64,000 nucleotides of DNA from Thermosynechococcus sp. CL-1 (lineage in GTDB: Bacteria; Cyanobacteriota; Cyanobacteriia; Thermosynechococcales; Thermosynechococcaceae), in assembly GCF_008386235.1 (NCBI RefSeq), contig NZ_CP040671.1, positions 744,001 to 808,000 on the forward strand, given 5' to 3'. Positions within the stretch are counted from its first letter, which is position 1, and every line of letters starts with the position of its first letter. Shown piece after piece: positions 6,663 to 51,325 of the stretch. A model generated the notes under the pieces. It was given only the letters and a program-made list of their open reading frames with translations, ran no database searches and was not told where the DNA came from. Both the position numbers and the translations under genes were made by a program.

Positions 6663-7353
6663 GGTGCAAATGGAGAATCCGATGGGGGACTAAGCGAGTC
6701 AAGGCTAAGTCATGGGTGGTAAAGAGAACCGTTAGCCCATGTTGATGGAGGCGATGGAGCAGGGCAAGAATTTGTTGGCTGGTTTGCGGATCCAGATTGC
6801 CCGTGGGTTCATCCGCCAGCAATAGCTCAGGCCCACCAACGATCGCCCGAGCAATGCTCACCCGCTGCTGCTCTCCCCCCGATAGAGATTGGGGATTGGC
6901 ATTGGCTTTGTGGCTCAGGCCCACCAGTTTGAGCGCCGTTTGTACCCGCTGCTGAATTTCTGCTTTGGGAATACCGCGCACCAGCAGCGCAAAGGCCACA
7001 TTCTCTGCCACGGAGCGATCGCCCAAGAGCTTAAAGTCCTGAAAAATCACCCCTAGGCGCCGCCGCAACTGTGCCATCCGCCGATCCTGCTGGGGATTGA
7101 CTTCCTCACCAAACAGGCGAACTATGCCCTGATCTGGGCGAACTTGGCCACAGAGAAGTTTTAAGAGGGTGGATTTACCCGACCCCGAAGCACCCGTGAG
7201 AAAATAAAACTCTCCCCGTCGCAGTTGTAAATTGACGCGATGTAAGCAGGGCAAAGTGCCACCAAAGGACTTCGTGACTTGCCACAGTTCTGCAACGATT
7301 ACCCCCTCAGAGGTGGGTTCGCAGGGGGGTACCACTGGGGTCACTGCTGTCAT
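6631..7353 (-). CDS. ftsE: Cell-division ATP-binding protein FtsE
   Basis: An ABC ATPase of 240 residues with Walker [10 protein letters not shown] (54-62), signature LSGGEQQR (157-164), Walker B LLLADEP (177-183) and the FtsE-like FQDFKLL at the Q-loop (about 104-110). The ATG at 7353 was chosen because it overlaps the wecG stop as ATGA; a longer frame upstream lies entirely inside wecG and has no ABC homology. About 18 non-conserved residues precede the ABC fold. FtsE partners FtsX, encoded next with a 32-base overlap. Confidence 0.92.
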
Positions 7354-8126
7354 CGGGACGAGAAACGCTGTCGCCCATACAAACGACTTAGGAGCGCCTT
7401 CCATGCAAATTGGGGCAAAGCCAACATCCGCCGCCAGCGCCACGGTTCCTGATACAGACGGTAGAGCCATTCTAGATGGAGTTTTTGCATTAGCTTGGGT
7501 GCTCGCTTTTTAACCCCTGCCCACACATCAAAACTACCGCCCACGCCAACCCAAATCGCCTCTGGGCAAATGTGACGATGGCGATCGATCCAGTATTCCT
7601 GCCGAGGCACCCCCAAAGCCACAAAAATAATGTGGGGTTGTGTCTCCTTCAGCGTTTCAATGAGAGCAACCTCTGTATCGGCATCGTGGTAGCCTGACTG
7701 CACACCAACAATGTTCAGGTTGGGCAACTCTCGATGCCAGCGCTCAGCCACTTTTTCTGCCACCCCCGGCGCTGCCCCATAGAAGAAGACCCGCTTGGGC
7801 TGGGGAGCTTCATTGGCAAGTCGCAGGAGGGCTTCGGCAAATTCAATCCCCGGCAGACGGCGCACCGAGAGGCCATGCAACTTGAGGTAGAGAATGACCC
7901 CCGATCCATCGGGAATCACCAAATCAGCACGGTGTAAAACATCGGCAAACTCTGGTGTGCGCTCCGCTAGGATCACCATCTCTGAATTGAGCGTGATTAC
8001 GTGCTGACCATGGCCATCCCGCTGCTGCATCAAGAGCCACTCTGGGGCATTATCCACCAAGTGCAGTGGAAAGCCAAGAACAGAGACCTTTACGGGAATG
8101 GCGGGAATTAGAACTGAGCGACCCAT
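7350..8126 (-). CDS. WecG/TagA/CpsF-family glycosyltransferase
   Basis: A 258-residue GT26-family enzyme with the conserved blocks VITLNSEM, ADLVIPDGSGV (holding the family's essential Asp), FFYGAAPG, and ALGVPRQEYWI near the C-terminal third. Members transfer N-acetylmannosamine(uronate) or similar sugars to a lipid-linked acceptor during surface polysaccharide assembly. The ATG at 8126 fits the family's N-terminus; the frame extends further upstream without homology. It is first in a leftward run and overlaps ftsE by 4 bases (ATGA). The WecA-like transferase at 45.6 kb could supply its lipid-linked substrate (inference). Confidence 0.88.
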   Translation of the reverse strand: MGRSVLIPAIPVKVSVLGFPLHLVDNAPEWLLMQQRDGHGQHVITLNSEMVILAERTPEFADVLHRADLVIPDGSGVILYLKLHGLSVRRLPGIEFAEALLRLANEAPQPKRVFFYGAAPGVAEKVAERWHRELPNLNIVGVQSGYHDADTEVALIETLKETQPHIIFVALGVPRQEYWIDRHRHICPEAIWVGVGGSFDVWAGVKKRAPKLMQKLHLEWLYRLYQEPWRWRRMLALPQFAWKALLSRLYGRQRFSSR

Positions 8127-8270
8127 AGGGCAAAATTCAGCGCAAGAAACACCGAGTATCTTACAGCCCTTTTCACAGTAATTGCACCCTCCCGGCAAAA
8201 ACAGCTTTTAACAGGGATGTTGAAGCAAGGGCCATAATAGCTACCGCCCTATCTTGGGATCTATGCGTTG

Positions 8271-8300
8271 TTGAAATCCACAAAACGCCTTTGCTAGATT
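8271..8300 (+). promoter_or_regulatory. Candidate promoter of psbD
   Basis: TTGAAA (8271-8276), an 18-base spacer and TAGATT (8295-8300) resemble a sigma-70 type promoter. The predicted start near 8307 would leave a leader of about 90 bases before the psbD ATG at 8396. This is pattern matching only; no transcript data are visible. Confidence 0.4.
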
Positions 8301-8395
8301 AGAGTCGTTATTAAGATTCGTAAACTTGGCTCTTATCGTCCCATTGAGCTACCTCACGAATCTGCCTTTATCACTTCCTTTTGGAGTTGAGTTTT

Positions 8396-36192: not shown

Positions 36193-36642
36193 ATGCAAAG
36201 CAATCTTTATGAAAGCGACTTTTATGCTTGGACCCTAGAGCAGGCAAAGTTACTCAAGACAGGCGACTTTGGCCATCTTGATATTGCCCACCTAGTAGAG
36301 GAAATCGAAGCCTTGGGACGGCAGGAGCGGCAAGAACTAAAAAACCGCCTCGGTGTTTTGATTGGGCATTTGCTGAAGTGGGAGTATCAGCCAGAAAGAC
36401 GCAGTAAAAGTTGGCGAGTCACGATTCAGATGCAACGACGCGAGATTAAGGATTTATTGGAGGAAAATCCTAGCCTTCAGTCTTATCTAACGAAGGCGAT
36501 CGCCAAAGCCTATTTGGCAGGACTCGACTTAGTGTGCTTGGAAACGCCCCTAGACTATCCAGATTTACCCCCAACCTGTCCCTATACCCTAGAACAATTG
36601 CTTGACCCAGACTTCCCGCGAGATTTGTATCCCACGGAATAG
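36193..36642 (+). CDS. DUF29 family protein, copy 1
   Basis: A 149-residue DUF29 protein (DFYAWTLEQAKLLKTGDFGHLDIAHLVEEIEALGRQERQEL, then LIGHLLKWEYQPERRSKSW). DUF29 genes are abundant, often multicopy and of unknown function in cyanobacteria. The ATG at 36193 fits the family. Bases 36217-36329 match 36683-36795 in the next gene at 110 of 113 positions, far more than the flanks, so recent conversion or duplication is likely. It is followed by copy 2 after 16 bases. Confidence 0.85.
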   Translation: MQSNLYESDFYAWTLEQAKLLKTGDFGHLDIAHLVEEIEALGRQERQELKNRLGVLIGHLLKWEYQPERRSKSWRVTIQMQRREIKDLLEENPSLQSYLTKAIAKAYLAGLDLVCLETPLDYPDLPPTCPYTLEQLLDPDFPRDLYPTE

Positions 36643-36658
36643 TTCACCATCAAAGGCC

Positions 36659-37096
36659 ATGACCTCTCCTCTGTATGACACGGACTTTTATGCTTGGACC
36701 CTAGAGCAGGCGAAGTTGCTCAAGGCAGGCGACTTTGGCCATCTTGATATTGCCCACCTAGTAGAGGAAATCGAAGCCTTGGGACGGCAGGAGCGTCGGG
36801 AGCTAGAAAATCGCCTCGGGATTCTCATTGGACATCTCCTGAAGTGGGACTATCAGCCGCAAAAACGCAGTAAAAGCTGGCGAGCAACCATTCGCGAACA
36901 ACGGCGAGCTGTGCAGAAACTGATCCATCAAAACCCCAGCCTGCAACCCTACTTACCCCAGGCGATCGCTGAGGCCTATGAATCTGGCAAAGATTTAGTG
37001 GTGCGTGAAACCCCCTTGGACTACTCAGATCTCCCTGAAACCTGCCCCTATACACTGGGGCAACTCTTTGATCCCGACTTTCCTGCCACGAAGTAA
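36659..37096 (+). CDS. DUF29 family protein, copy 2
   Basis: A 145-residue paralog of the preceding gene with the same layout (LYDTDFYAWTLEQAKLLKAG, LLKWDYQPQKRSKSW, and TCPYTLGQLFDPDFP at the end). Outside the near-identical 113-bp block the two genes differ at roughly one position in four to five. The ATG at 36659 is used; the frame is open earlier inside copy 1. The function is unknown. Confidence 0.85.
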   Translation: MTSPLYDTDFYAWTLEQAKLLKAGDFGHLDIAHLVEEIEALGRQERRELENRLGILIGHLLKWDYQPQKRSKSWRATIREQRRAVQKLIHQNPSLQPYLPQAIAEAYESGKDLVVRETPLDYSDLPETCPYTLGQLFDPDFPATK

Positions 37097-37167
37097 AAAA
37101 CTTCAGCGTTCTGAAGCATACTCATGGCATCAAGGCTATACTGGCAGTGACGACGTGGAGTCGCAGT

Positions 37168-37353
37168 ATGGATACAGCCCAAATTAAAGCTCTAGTGGAA
37201 AAAGCCCTAGAAGATAAAATTCTTACCCTCGAAGAGCATGGCCAAATTATTGACGCAGTGCTTTCCGATGGCCAAATTTCCGAAGAAGAGGAAAAAATTT
37301 TACAGGAACTCCTCGAACGGGTCGCCTCTGGGGAAGTTGATTCCCAGTATTAG
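37168..37353 (+). CDS. Small conserved acidic protein
   Basis: A 61-residue acidic, helix-rich protein (DTAQIKALVEKALEDKILTLEEHGQIIDAVLSDGQISEEEEKILQELL). Its two helix-loop-helix halves with D-x-x-ILT/ DGQISEEE recall degenerate EF-hand or tellurite-resistance-like repeats, but calcium ligands are not clear. I cannot name a family. It ends 4 bases into the 3' end of convergent tsaC. Confidence 0.65.
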   Translation: MDTAQIKALVEKALEDKILTLEEHGQIIDAVLSDGQISEEEEKILQELLERVASGEVDSQY

Positions 37354-47897: not shown

Positions 47898-48301
47898 GTC
47901 ACGGTCTGCTCTGGTTACCCCTATTGGCTATTTTTATCGTGCTGGCACGGTTGGGCTGGGTCGAGTACCGGAAGGTGGAACACTATCGCCAGTGGGCAAA
48001 AAATTTTGAAACCAGTAAATATGACATTGCCGCTGTCCTCGGTCAACAGGGCGATCGCTTGACATGGGGACGCCCTACCCAACAGGGCATTATTCATTTG
48101 CAAACTTGTGAATTATCGACTATTCAAAACATTTGGATTGAGTGTAACGGTCAACGAATTGACACACAAACTACTCATTCTAAAGGAGCAATTCAACTGG
48201 TGCTAGAAACCTTTACAGGAGACTGTTATCGCATTCCTTTTACAGAATTCACCCTTGCCTTGGCATGGCGCGATCGCCTGCAACGGGCGATCGGGAACTG
48301 A
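47894..48301 (+). CDS. Small membrane-anchored protein, unknown
   Basis: A 135-residue protein with one N-terminal membrane helix (about 4-22, HGLLWLPLLAIFIVLARLGW) and a soluble domain rich in beta strands (KYDIAAVLGQQGDRLTWGRPTQQG, IWIECNGQRIDTQTTHSKG). The ATG overlaps the cinA stop as ATGA. I do not recognise a family. Confidence 0.65.
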   Translation: MSHGLLWLPLLAIFIVLARLGWVEYRKVEHYRQWAKNFETSKYDIAAVLGQQGDRLTWGRPTQQGIIHLQTCELSTIQNIWIECNGQRIDTQTTHSKGAIQLVLETFTGDCYRIPFTEFTLALAWRDRLQRAIGN

Positions 48302-48348
48302 TGGGGTCGATTAAAAACTAAAAAAATCTAAATTGTGCTTGACTAAGC

Positions 48349-48377
48349 TTGAAAATTAAGCGAAGTCTGACTAGAGT
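48349..48377 (+). promoter_or_regulatory. Candidate promoter of the adhesin gene
   Basis: TTGAAA (48349-48354), a 17-base spacer and TAGAGT (48372-48377) match a sigma-70 type promoter. It would leave a leader of about 170 bases. The leader includes a TCGCT-AGCGA hairpin near 48427-48445 around a T-run, possibly a structure with regulatory use. This is pattern matching only. The gap before the adhesin gene (48302-48556) is otherwise AT-rich and unexplained. Confidence 0.4.
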
Positions 48378-48556
48378 TACTTAAATAGTGAGCTAACGGG
48401 GGATACCAAAAAGGCAGGGTTTTCTTTCGCTTTTTTAGCGACTGTAGGACTTGTGTCTTTTTGAGTTTAAGGAAAGAGTAGCCCATAGGAAAGTGCAAAA
48501 TTCTACAAAGCACTTGACTGTTGTATTTACACCTTAACCTTGGGAGGCCTATCCTC

Positions 48557-51061
48557 ATGTGCAAAAGACTACACCCCGTTTTGGCTTGTGTTGTTAGCAC
48601 AACAGTGCGCATTATTCTAGTCACCACACCTGCATTGTCTCAAACTCGAGACTGTGGGAATCCTATTCCTCCTTTTCCTTTTTTGTTCAATTCTGCCACT
48701 GGTACAGGGAACGAAAACCTAATTTGTGGCGCAAATAACAATTTACTCCCTGCCTTGCAACGGTCTATTGCTGTTGGTATTAGCAACACAGTAAATGGTG
48801 GCACTGTCGCCAATCATGCGATCGGTAGCAACAATAACCTTGGGCCAAACATAAATACCGAAAACACTGCTGTTGGTCATAATAACCAAATTAACAGAGT
48901 TAATGCTCAGAATCATGCCTTTGGCTCTAACAACACAATCGGCATTGGAGCGCCTATTCCAGATGAAGACAAAGGCAACAATAACACTGCCCTAGGAGCA
49001 CAAAATCAAGTCGGCACAACTGGAACACCCAGTGGATCAGGTTCTTTTCCCAACGCAGCTCGCAATAACAATACCGCAGTCGGTTATCAAAACGTTGCTG
49101 ATGGCATTGCGAATGCGAATACAACTGGCAGTAACAACACCGCCATTGGCATGCAGAACCGAGCCGAGGGTGATAACAACACTGCTGTGGGGATGCAGAA
49201 CCGAGCCACCCAAGCAAACGCCACCGCTGTGGGGATGCAGAACCGAGCCACCCAAGCAAACGCCACCGCTGTGGGGATGCAGAACCGAGCCACCCAAGCA
49301 AACGCCACCGCTGTGGGGATGCAGAACCGAGCCACCCAAGCAAACGCCACCGCTGTGGGGATGCAGAACCGAGCCACCCAAGCAAACGCCACCGCTGTGG
49401 GGATGCAGAACCGAGCCACCCAAGCAAACGCCACCGCTGTGGGGATGCAGAACCGAGCCCAAGGAGCTAATAGCACCGCGATGGGGATGCAGAATTCAGC
49501 GAATGCAGCAAATGCCACCGCCGTGGGGATGCAGAATAATTATGATGGCACCTACCTGACCCCTGGCGAAAACAGTACCGCTGTGGGGATGCAGAACCGA
49601 GCCCAAGGAGATAGAAGCACCGCAATGGGGTTTGTGAACCAAGCTCTGGGAAATGACAGCAGTGCGGTTGGCTTTGCAAACACTGCACAAGGAGTTCAGA
49701 GCAGCGCGGTTGGCTTTGCAAACACTGCACAAGGAGCTAATAGCACCGCAATGGGGTTTGTGAACCAAGCCAACGCAGACAACACTACAGCTGTGGGGTT
49801 TGTGAACCAAGCCAATGCAGTAAATGCCACCGCGATGGGGATGCAGAATTCAGCGAATGCAGCAAATGCCACCGCCGTGGGTAGACAGAACTTTGCCACT
49901 CAACAGGACGCCACCGCCGTAGGCTCTGGTAACCAAGCCCAAGGAGTTCGGAGCAGCGCGGTTGGCTTTGCAAACACCGCCCAAGGGCTTGACAGCACCG
50001 CAATGGGTTCGGGCAACCAAGCCACCCAAAACAATGCCACCGCTGTGGGGAGGCAGAACCTAGCCCAAGGAGCTGACAGCACCGCAATGGGGTTTTTGAA
50101 CCAAGCAAATGCAGCAAACGCCACCGCTGTAGGCTCTGGCAACCAAGCGCTGGGGGCTCGTAGTATTGCCATTGGCCACCAAAGTACTGCAAATCCCGCT
50201 GATAGTATTGCAATTGGTCAGACTGCCCAAGTCGTGGGTGGTGCTACTGATGGTGTGGCCATTGGTAGAGGTGCCACAGTTCAACATGCCAACAGTGTGG
50301 CCATTGGGGCAAACTCTGTAACAACACAGGCCAATGTTGTGTCTGTTGGTGCCCCCGGTGCTGAACGCAAGGTTGTCAATGTTGCGCCTGGCATCATTGC
50401 ACCAACGAGTACGGATGCAATCAATGGCAGTCAGCTCTCTGCCCTCATCAACCAACTGTTTGCTACTGGAATTTGTTCAATCACTAACGCAACAGTAACG
50501 TGCGGTAACATTGCTTTGGGAAATGCTGCTAACCCTGGGGGTGCTAATAGTATTGCCATTGGCAACAATTCAACGACGGGTGCCAATAATGCCATTGCCT
50601 TTGGCCCATCGGCACAGGCCATCCATCCCAACAGTGTGGCCATTGGCGCTGGCTCTGTAACAACAGCTCCCAACACGGTTTCTGTGGGCGCCCCAGGAGC
50701 AGAACGCCGCATTACCAATGTCGCCACCCCCATCAATCCAACGGATGCTGTCAATAAAGCCTATGTTGACGGCATGGGAGCAGTGGCCTTGGGAGCAGCG
50801 AATGCCTACACCGATGCTCAAATCAATCAATTACGGGGAGAGGCTTTTGCGGGCATTGCCTCGGCAGCAGCACTCATGCCGATTGTGCCGGCACGTTCTG
50901 GTCAAACCACATTTAATGTGGGATTTGCAACCTACGGTGGATACAGTGCAGCCGGGATGGCTATAGCCCACCAAATCGGACCGGTGATTATTGATGCAGG
51001 GGCAAGTTTTTCTAGTGCAGGCTATCCCTTAGCACGCATTGGTATCGGCGCCCGTTTTTAG
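48557..51061 (+). CDS. YadA-like trimeric autotransporter adhesin
   Basis: An 834-residue surface protein. It has a signal peptide (about 1-28), then a long head of 14-residue left-handed-helix repeats of YadA/Hia type (pattern xTAVGxQNxAxxxN, Gly-Asn-Ala rich), including six identical copies at residues 215-298. Two neck motifs follow (GAERKVVNVAPG...TDAINGSQLSAL and GAERRITNVATPINPTDAVNKAYV). A short stalk leads to a C-terminal anchor of about 75 residues that ends in an aromatic (GIGARF), as in outer-membrane trimeric barrels. This is the type V(c) secretion layout. It lacks a long coiled-coil stalk. Trimeric adhesins are poorly described in cyanobacteria. The ATG at 48557 starts the signal peptide. 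Confidence 0.85.
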   Translation: MCKRLHPVLACVVSTTVRIILVTTPALSQTRDCGNPIPPFPFLFNSATGTGNENLICGANNNLLPALQRSIAVGISNTVNGGTVANHAIGSNNNLGPNINTENTAVGHNNQINRVNAQNHAFGSNNTIGIGAPIPDEDKGNNNTALGAQNQVGTTGTPSGSGSFPNAARNNNTAVGYQNVADGIANANTTGSNNTAIGMQNRAEGDNNTAVGMQNRATQANATAVGMQNRATQANATAVGMQNRATQANATAVGMQNRATQANATAVGMQNRATQANATAVGMQNRATQANATAVGMQNRAQGANSTAMGMQNSANAANATAVGMQNNYDGTYLTPGENSTAVGMQNRAQGDRSTAMGFVNQALGNDSSAVGFANTAQGVQSSAVGFANTAQGANSTAMGFVNQANADNTTAVGFVNQANAVNATAMGMQNSANAANATAVGRQNFATQQDATAVGSGNQAQGVRSSAVGFANTAQGLDSTAMGSGNQATQNNATAVGRQNLAQGADSTAMGFLNQANAANATAVGSGNQALGARSIAIGHQSTANPADSIAIGQTAQVVGGATDGVAIGRGATVQHANSVAIGANSVTTQANVVSVGAPGAERKVVNVAPGIIAPTSTDAINGSQLSALINQLFATGICSITNATVTCGNIALGNAANPGGANSIAIGNNSTTGANNAIAFGPSAQAIHPNSVAIGAGSVTTAPNTVSVGAPGAERRITNVATPINPTDAVNKAYVDGMGAVALGAANAYTDAQINQLRGEAFAGIASAAALMPIVPARSGQTTFNVGFATYGGYSAAGMAIAHQIGPVIIDAGASFSSAGYPLARIGIGARF
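49199..49450 (+). repeat. Six perfect 42-bp tandem repeats in the adhesin head
   Basis: A 42-base unit encoding NRATQANATAVGMQ occurs six times back to back (starts 49199, 49241, 49283, 49325, 49367, 49409) with no mismatch that I can see. Flanking units at 49157 and 49451 are diverged. Perfect identity means recent expansion by slippage or recombination and predicts length variation between strains. The unit length is 14 codons, so changes keep the frame. Confidence 0.95.
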
Positions 51062-51166
51062 AACAACAGGGAACTAGGGGGGCTTTGATGTCCACATTTG
51101 GGAAAAGACGCTAGCCTTTAAAATTGAAGCTAAGCCTCCTCAATACTGCCCAAGGAATCTAGCCCT

Positions 51167-51325
51167 ATGGATGTGTCTGTGGTCAACCAGAATCCACCAT
51201 TTATGCTGAATCAGCCAGCAATGGCTCAGTCTTGGATCAAGCCCTGCAAAGTGGTCTTCTTCTGGAAACGCAGTGGCTTTTATGGGGCTTTGGATTCAAG
51301 GCTTTTTGCTGTTGGAGGTCGCTGA
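51167..51325 (+). CDS. Small 52-residue protein ahead of the GT9 gene
   Basis: Translation from the ATG at 51167 gives MDVSVVNQNPPFMLNQPAM..., with a basic/aromatic core (KPCKVVFFWKRSGFYGALDSRL). AAGGA (51153-51157) precedes it. Its stop TGA shares bases with the ATG of the glycosyltransferase gene (TGATG at 51323-51327), which suggests translational coupling. I do not recognise the family and it is too short for strong evidence. Confidence 0.5.
   Translation: MDVSVVNQNPPFMLNQPAMAQSWIKPCKVVFFWKRSGFYGALDSRLFAVGGR

What the first reader, a model, noticed from the sequence alone, without database searches (positions are those of the whole stretch)
48557..51061. YadA-like trimeric autotransporter in a cyanobacterium
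Signal peptide, 14-residue head repeats, two neck motifs and a C-terminal anchor ending in Phe give a type Vc secreted adhesin layout. Such proteins are well known in proteobacteria but rarely discussed in cyanobacteria. The stalk is nearly absent: the second neck leads quickly to the anchor. It could mediate aggregation or biofilm attachment in hot-spring mats.
Basis: partly seen in the sequence, partly recalled or inferred. Interest (0 to 1): 0.8.

Follow-up and report, generated by a model that had tools for sequence, protein, structure and literature searches.

The report
Trimeric surface adhesin in a thermophilic cyanobacterium
A hot-spring cyanobacterium carries a complete gene for a YadA-type sticky surface fibre of the kind known from disease bacteria; related copies sit at different chromosome sites in its sister species and several of them are broken, so it is a real but known kind of protein in an unusual host.

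Summary
The 834-codon gene at 48557-51061 (+) encodes a canonical trimeric autotransporter adhesin (type Vc): signal-peptide-like start, 18 YadA_head stretches, two necks (YadA_stalk), and a C-terminal YadA_anchor above Pfam's cut-off. The predicted C-terminal fold matches the solved Hia and YadA anchors. The 'nearly absent stalk' is also right.

Comparison across the genus added four things. (1) Copies or remnants occur in 8 of 11 Thermosynechococcus genomes, in none of the other members of its family searched, and in other cyanobacteria only as distant relatives. (2) The copies sit at four chromosomal sites; the window's site is empty in most other species. Synonymous divergence shows that copies at different sites are older than the species: paralogues or transferred genes. 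(3) The anchor is under strong purifying selection (dN/dS about 0.04-0.1). (4) Of the copies covered end to end, only the window's has one open frame; others carry a stop, a fresh IS insertion or an internal deletion, although two further breaks may be sequencing errors.

Its function, an adhesin exported through Omp85/BAM, is inferred; trimerisation, secretion and adhesion were not tested. Verdict: new member of a known kind, of moderate interest.

The parts
48557..51061 (+). trimeric autotransporter adhesin gene, 834 aa, stop included
   Evidence: intact frame
48542..48547 (+). Shine-Dalgarno-like GGGAGG, 9 nt before the ATG
   Evidence: sequence
48557..48643 (+). signal-peptide-like N terminus (MCKRLHPVLACVVSTTVRIILVTTPALS/Q)
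   Evidence: sequence; same layout in four relatives; no signal predictor available
48644..48769 (+). N-terminal region with cysteines C33 and C57, both invariant in five relatives (possible disulphide)
   Evidence: structure not predicted with confidence
48770..50340 (+). long YadA-type head: 14-residue beta-roll repeats, regular from about residue 196 on
49180..49536 (+). nearly perfect 42-nt tandem array (8.5 copies, 92% match) coding TAVGMQNRATQANA units
50339..50431 (+). neck 1 (ERKVVNVAPG...TSTDAINGSQL), YadA_stalk
50474..50503 (+). insert with cysteines C640 and C649 between neck 1 and head 2, invariant in five aligned genus sequences
50507..50680 (+). second, short YadA-type head
50678..50761 (+). 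neck 2 (ERRITNVATPINPTDAVNKAYVDG)
   Evidence: sequence
50759..50872 (+). very short stalk plus anchor helix (model helix 173-192 = residues 753-772)
50888..51058 (+). YadA_anchor: four transmembrane strands, C-terminal Phe
48285..51324 (.). segment inserted between two conserved genes; most other species of the genus have only a spacer of about 45-50 bp here

Best explanation
The gene encodes a canonical type Vc secreted protein of Thermosynechococcus sp. CL-1. Inferred path: Sec export; trimerisation in the periplasm; Omp85/BAM-assisted assembly of a 12-stranded barrel made of four strands from each of three chains; passage of the heads through that barrel; display of a head-dominated fibre with almost no stalk. 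The long beta-roll head then binds other cells, matrix or surfaces in hot-spring mats. The family behaves as accessory surface equipment: long-lived and selected in the genus, but held at different chromosome sites, with highly variable head length, and repeatedly lost or broken. Shown here: domain order, predicted anchor fold, selection on the anchor, scattered sites, broken copies. Inferred: trimer, secretion, adhesion, ligand.
For: Pfam head, neck and anchor. Solved-structure sequence hits BpaC 1.9e-26, CbpF 2.4e-23, BoaA, UspA1, SadA, YadA. Anchor model matches Hia and YadA, head model matches SadA, BoaA, BpaC. The genome has an Omp85/BamA frame of 678 aa, E=1.4e-72. Anchor dN/dS is 0.02-0.11 for all measurable pairs but one. 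The site-A copies of the window and G010 have TAA dS 0.66 against 0.64 for the neighbouring gene, so they descended together. Empty and alternative sites were seen directly.
Against: No expression, secretion or adhesion data exist. Published Thermosynechococcus strains are reported not to aggregate in axenic culture, and induced aggregation is attributed to c-di-GMP signalling and pili (PMC11434263, PMC5871770). Frequent breakage shows that the protein is dispensable, at least in culture.
Confidence: 0.85

Rival explanations
1. A genuine type Vc protein whose main role is not adhesion but a surface coat, for example shielding against phage or protease, or spacing of cells.
For: The head is long and repetitive with no recognisable ligand module, and head length varies strongly between species.
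Against: Nearest solved relatives with YadA heads are adhesins.
Confidence: 0.25
2. A gene that is decaying or no longer expressed and happens to be intact in this strain only.
For: G010 has a stop, G006 an IS insertion, G009 an internal deletion.
Against: The window frame is intact over 834 codons, and the anchor shows strong purifying selection in nearly all comparisons. This constraint is averaged over the whole history and does not exclude very recent loss of expression.
Confidence: 0.15
3. A phage tail-fibre or other structural protein with YadA-like head repeats.
For: A cyanophage paper mentions YadA repeatedly (PMC9146016, seen only as a search result).
Against: Signal-peptide-like start and a C-terminal YadA_anchor with a matching fold; the neighbours are ordinary chromosomal genes.
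Confidence: 0.02

Closest known systems
YadA of Yersinia and the trimeric autotransporter adhesins with YadA-type heads (BpaC, BoaA, UspA1, SadA)
   Same: Head of 14-residue beta-roll repeats, neck, C-terminal anchor of one helix and four strands; sequence and fold matches.
   Different: Almost no coiled-coil stalk; two Cys pairs conserved in the genus; thermophilic cyanobacterial host; best full-length matches outside the genus only about 38% identical.
Hia of Haemophilus (anchor domain 2gr7, 2gr8)
   Same: Anchor fold: Z 11.3, 1.5 A over 75 residues.
   Different: 24% identity in that alignment; different passenger (from general knowledge).
CbpF of Fusobacterium (9gh4, 9u93)
   Same: Long YadA-type head outside Proteobacteria, second-best sequence match.
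   Different: CbpF structures are complexes with human CEACAM proteins; no host of that kind is expected here.
YadA_anchor proteins of other cyanobacteria (small-genome family f19, family f14)
   Same: Hit PF03895 above the cut-off; some share the head profile.
   Different: In five loci of the small-genome group (L034, L037, L042, L047, L050) the anchor has cysteines and is followed by about 70-160 further residues. The Thermosynechococcus anchor profile does not find such anchors significantly, while it finds a Paraburkholderia anchor at 1e-5.

Membership tests
Trimeric autotransporter adhesin (type Vc) | C-terminal YadA_anchor domain (PF03895) at the end of the protein | tested here: met
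   32.0 bits vs cut-off 22.7, residues 778-833 of 834
Trimeric autotransporter adhesin (type Vc) | Anchor protomer of one helix and four membrane strands | tested here: met
   AlphaFold2 model, strands 204-213, 216-227, 230-239, 244-252; matches 2gr8 and 2lme. Monomer prediction only.
Trimeric autotransporter adhesin (type Vc) | Neck motif / YadA_stalk (PF05662) | tested here: met
   37.9 bits vs 28.4 on the C-terminal part; not reported in the whole-protein scan
Trimeric autotransporter adhesin (type Vc) | YadA-type head repeats (PF05658) | tested here: met
   E 5.8e-47, 18 stretches; 14-residue spacing far beyond shuffles
Trimeric autotransporter adhesin (type Vc) | Sec signal peptide | tested here: inconclusive
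   By eye: KR, hydrophobic stretch, ALS/Q; conserved layout in relatives; no predictor run
Trimeric autotransporter adhesin (type Vc) | Long coiled-coil stalk (usual, not obligatory) | tested here: not met
   Only about 20-35 residues between neck 2 and the anchor helix
Trimeric autotransporter adhesin (type Vc) | Omp85/BamA in the genome (needed for assembly) | tested here: met
   PF01103 E 1.4e-72
Trimeric autotransporter adhesin (type Vc) | Homotrimer, surface display, adhesion | not testable with these tools
   needs experiment or a multimer prediction

The most novel reading that the evidence does not exclude
A free-living thermophilic cyanobacterial genus keeps a family of trimeric adhesins that behaves as a mobile, high-turnover surface locus: ancient paralogous lineages at different sites, extreme head-length variation, and repeated independent inactivation in isolates. 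It would be exported by a cyanobacterial BAM that has three POTRA domains and mostly lacks the accessory lipoproteins, and it would mediate mat aggregation that is lost on domestication.
Probability: 0.3. Interest if true: 0.65.

Novelty: new member of a known kind. Interest (0 to 1): 0.45.

Why it matters
Type Vc adhesins are studied almost only in pathogens. An intact one in a cultured cyanobacterium would make two questions testable: whether the minimal cyanobacterial BAM (three POTRA domains, mostly no accessory lipoproteins; PMC6604945) can export trimeric adhesins, and whether protein adhesins, not only polysaccharide and pili, hold hot-spring mats together. A thermostable adhesin may also be a useful structural model.

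Tried and rejected
Phage tail fibre: rejected because of the anchor and the chromosomal context. Orthology of all genus copies: rejected, because dS between copies at different sites (1.1 to saturation) exceeds dS of the flanking gene (0.25-1.03), while the two site-A copies match it. A phase-variable homopolymer tract as the cause of the breaks: not found; the G003 break is one extra A in ACCTAACC. Counting G007's many frame breaks as decay: rejected, because the neighbouring CobW-like gene is broken too. Counting the G003 (NK55a) break as real: left open, because that genome was sequenced by 454 and its authors report an unclosed gap in a repeat-rich 'hemagglutinin-like gene', possibly this one (PMC3907722); the fetched stretch holds no N. 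A transposon carrying the gene at site A: no transposase frame or terminal repeats seen in the insert by eye. AlphaFold2 of residues 29-328 alone: the N-terminal part has low confidence, so no fold is claimed there. Donor: the scan outside the genus gave mostly Burkholderiales and other proteobacterial hits, about 38% identical at best over the full query; it was seeded by neck peptides and is biased, so a donor is only suggested. A deep tree of anchors was not built, because the domain is about 60 residues.

Full report
WHAT IS THERE. The finding's coordinates hold one open reading frame, 48557-51061 (+), 834 aa, with GGGAGG nine bases before the ATG. Pfam finds YadA_head (5.8e-47, 18 stretches) and YadA_anchor (1.3e-7, above cut-off, residues 778-833). 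YadA_stalk/neck appears above cut-off when the C-terminal part is scanned alone. The head motif recurs at exactly 14 residues 27 times; shuffles reach 2. A 42-nt array at 49180-49536 is nearly perfect, which suggests recent unit duplication. The nearest solved relatives by sequence include BpaC, CbpF, BoaA, UspA1, SadA and YadA.

STRUCTURE. AlphaFold2 of residues 581-834 in an alignment of ten sequences gives a confident second head (pLDDT about 86-93), a helix and four strands; the necks and the first part are low-confidence. VIA-align 2: Hia anchor 2gr8, Z 11.3, 1.5 A over 75 residues; YadA anchor 2lme, Z 10.1, 4.3 A over 93; heads of SadA, BoaA and BpaC, Z 11-12.6. Foldseek agrees. These are monomer models; the trimer is inferred from the family. 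Residues 29-328 alone gave 14-residue beta-roll strands from about residue 195 on at moderate confidence and no fold for the N-terminal region. That region has Cys33 and Cys57, invariant in five relatives. A second pair, Cys640 and Cys649, follows neck 1 and is invariant in five aligned relatives.

HOST. The genome is one contig of 2,647,823 bp, the published size of Thermosynechococcus sp. CL-1. By the same table (PMC7005997), G010 has the size of BP-1, G003 of NK55 and G001 of PCC 6715. These identifications rest on length plus genus-level hits. The CL-1 paper's account of acquired genes does not mention this gene.

DISTRIBUTION. In the genus, 8 of 11 genomes hold a copy or remnant; two of these, G004 and G005, are cut by contig ends (its ninth hit, G002, is a weak match at 1.5e-4 to the repeats and is not counted). 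None of the other family members searched has one. In the phylum sample, 16 of 386 genomes (8 of 142 genera) carry PF03895 at E<=1e-4. In five loci of the small-genome group (L034, L037, L042, L047, L050) the anchor carries cysteines and is not at the C terminus; the Thermosynechococcus anchor profile does not reach such anchors significantly.

SITES. In the window and in G010 the gene sits between the small gene after a CinA-like gene and a heptosyltransferase-like gene (names by eye). In G001-G007 and G009 these two genes are nearly adjacent; where I read the junction in G002-G007 and G009, the spacer is about 45-50 bp. For G008 only part of the left flank aligned. In G003 and G007 the gene lies next to a CobW-like gene, where other species have other genes. 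In G006 it lies in the stretch equivalent to window 36663-37168. In G004, G005 and G009 it lies by a GGDEF-EAL gene. The site-A copies diverged in step with their neighbour (dS 0.66 vs 0.64), but copies at different sites differ by dS of 1.1 to saturation against 0.25-1.03 for the neighbour. G010 (BP-1) is closer to G003 (NK55) in flanking genes (91%), yet its adhesin is closest to the window's (84% vs 74%). So the sites hold older paralogues with differential loss, or transferred copies. The G004/G005 pair (TAA dS 0.22, neighbour 0.70) looks like exchange between species.

STATE OF THE COPIES. Window: intact. G010: one in-frame TGA. G006: a 1.1-kb IS (transposase frame of 344 aa; ends CCAGAAGTGTTGAA; 8-bp target duplication CTGCAAAC), 100% identical to a second copy just upstream; joining the flanks to show the empty site gives one frame. 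G009: internal deletion leaving the signal-peptide region and the last 23 codons. G003: one extra base, possibly a sequencing error. G007: many breaks, probably assembly errors. G004 and G005: undecidable. The anchor's dN/dS is 0.02-0.11 for all measurable pairs but one (0.22 for G004-G005), so the family has been under constraint for most of its history.

FUNCTION. The domain order and the presence of Omp85 support export by type Vc secretion, as far as sequence can. Adhesion or autoaggregation is the family's usual role and is my best guess for mats. Known aggregation here runs through c-di-GMP signalling and pili (PMC5871770; PMC11434263). Strain NK55a, whose copy is broken in the deposited sequence, is reported not to aggregate alone; that is consistent but not evidence of cause.

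NOVELTY. It is a normal member of a known protein kind in an unusual host. I found no paper describing it; the NK55a genome note mentions only 'a hemagglutinin-like gene' (PMC3907722). The turnover across the genus is the new part.

Noticed in passing
L034, L037, L042, L047, L050: YadA_anchor proteins of other (small-genome) cyanobacteria have cysteines in the anchor and about 70-160 residues after the last strand, where canonical members end; open frames of the group reach 3602 aa. Possibly a distinct anchor subtype.
   Followed up: partly
L055:2272-7299: In G006 the head is expanded by many copies of a 174-nt (58-aa) unit, giving a 1675-aa frame before the IS insertion.
   Followed up: partly
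L055:994-2085 and 7249-8340: Two 100% identical inverted copies of an IS lie just upstream of and inside the adhesin gene: very recent transposition.
   Followed up: yes
window 36500-37100: A small repeated gene family stands where G006 carries its adhesin; two related copies align to one G006 gene at 93% and 75%.
   Followed up: no
L054:774-1892: The CobW-like gene is frame-broken in G007 but intact in G003, which suggests a poor G007 assembly.
   Followed up: no
L191 (G000:C1:733703-734164): A second, partial Omp85-family match (E 2.3e-11) in the genome, about 10 kb before the window start.
   Followed up: no
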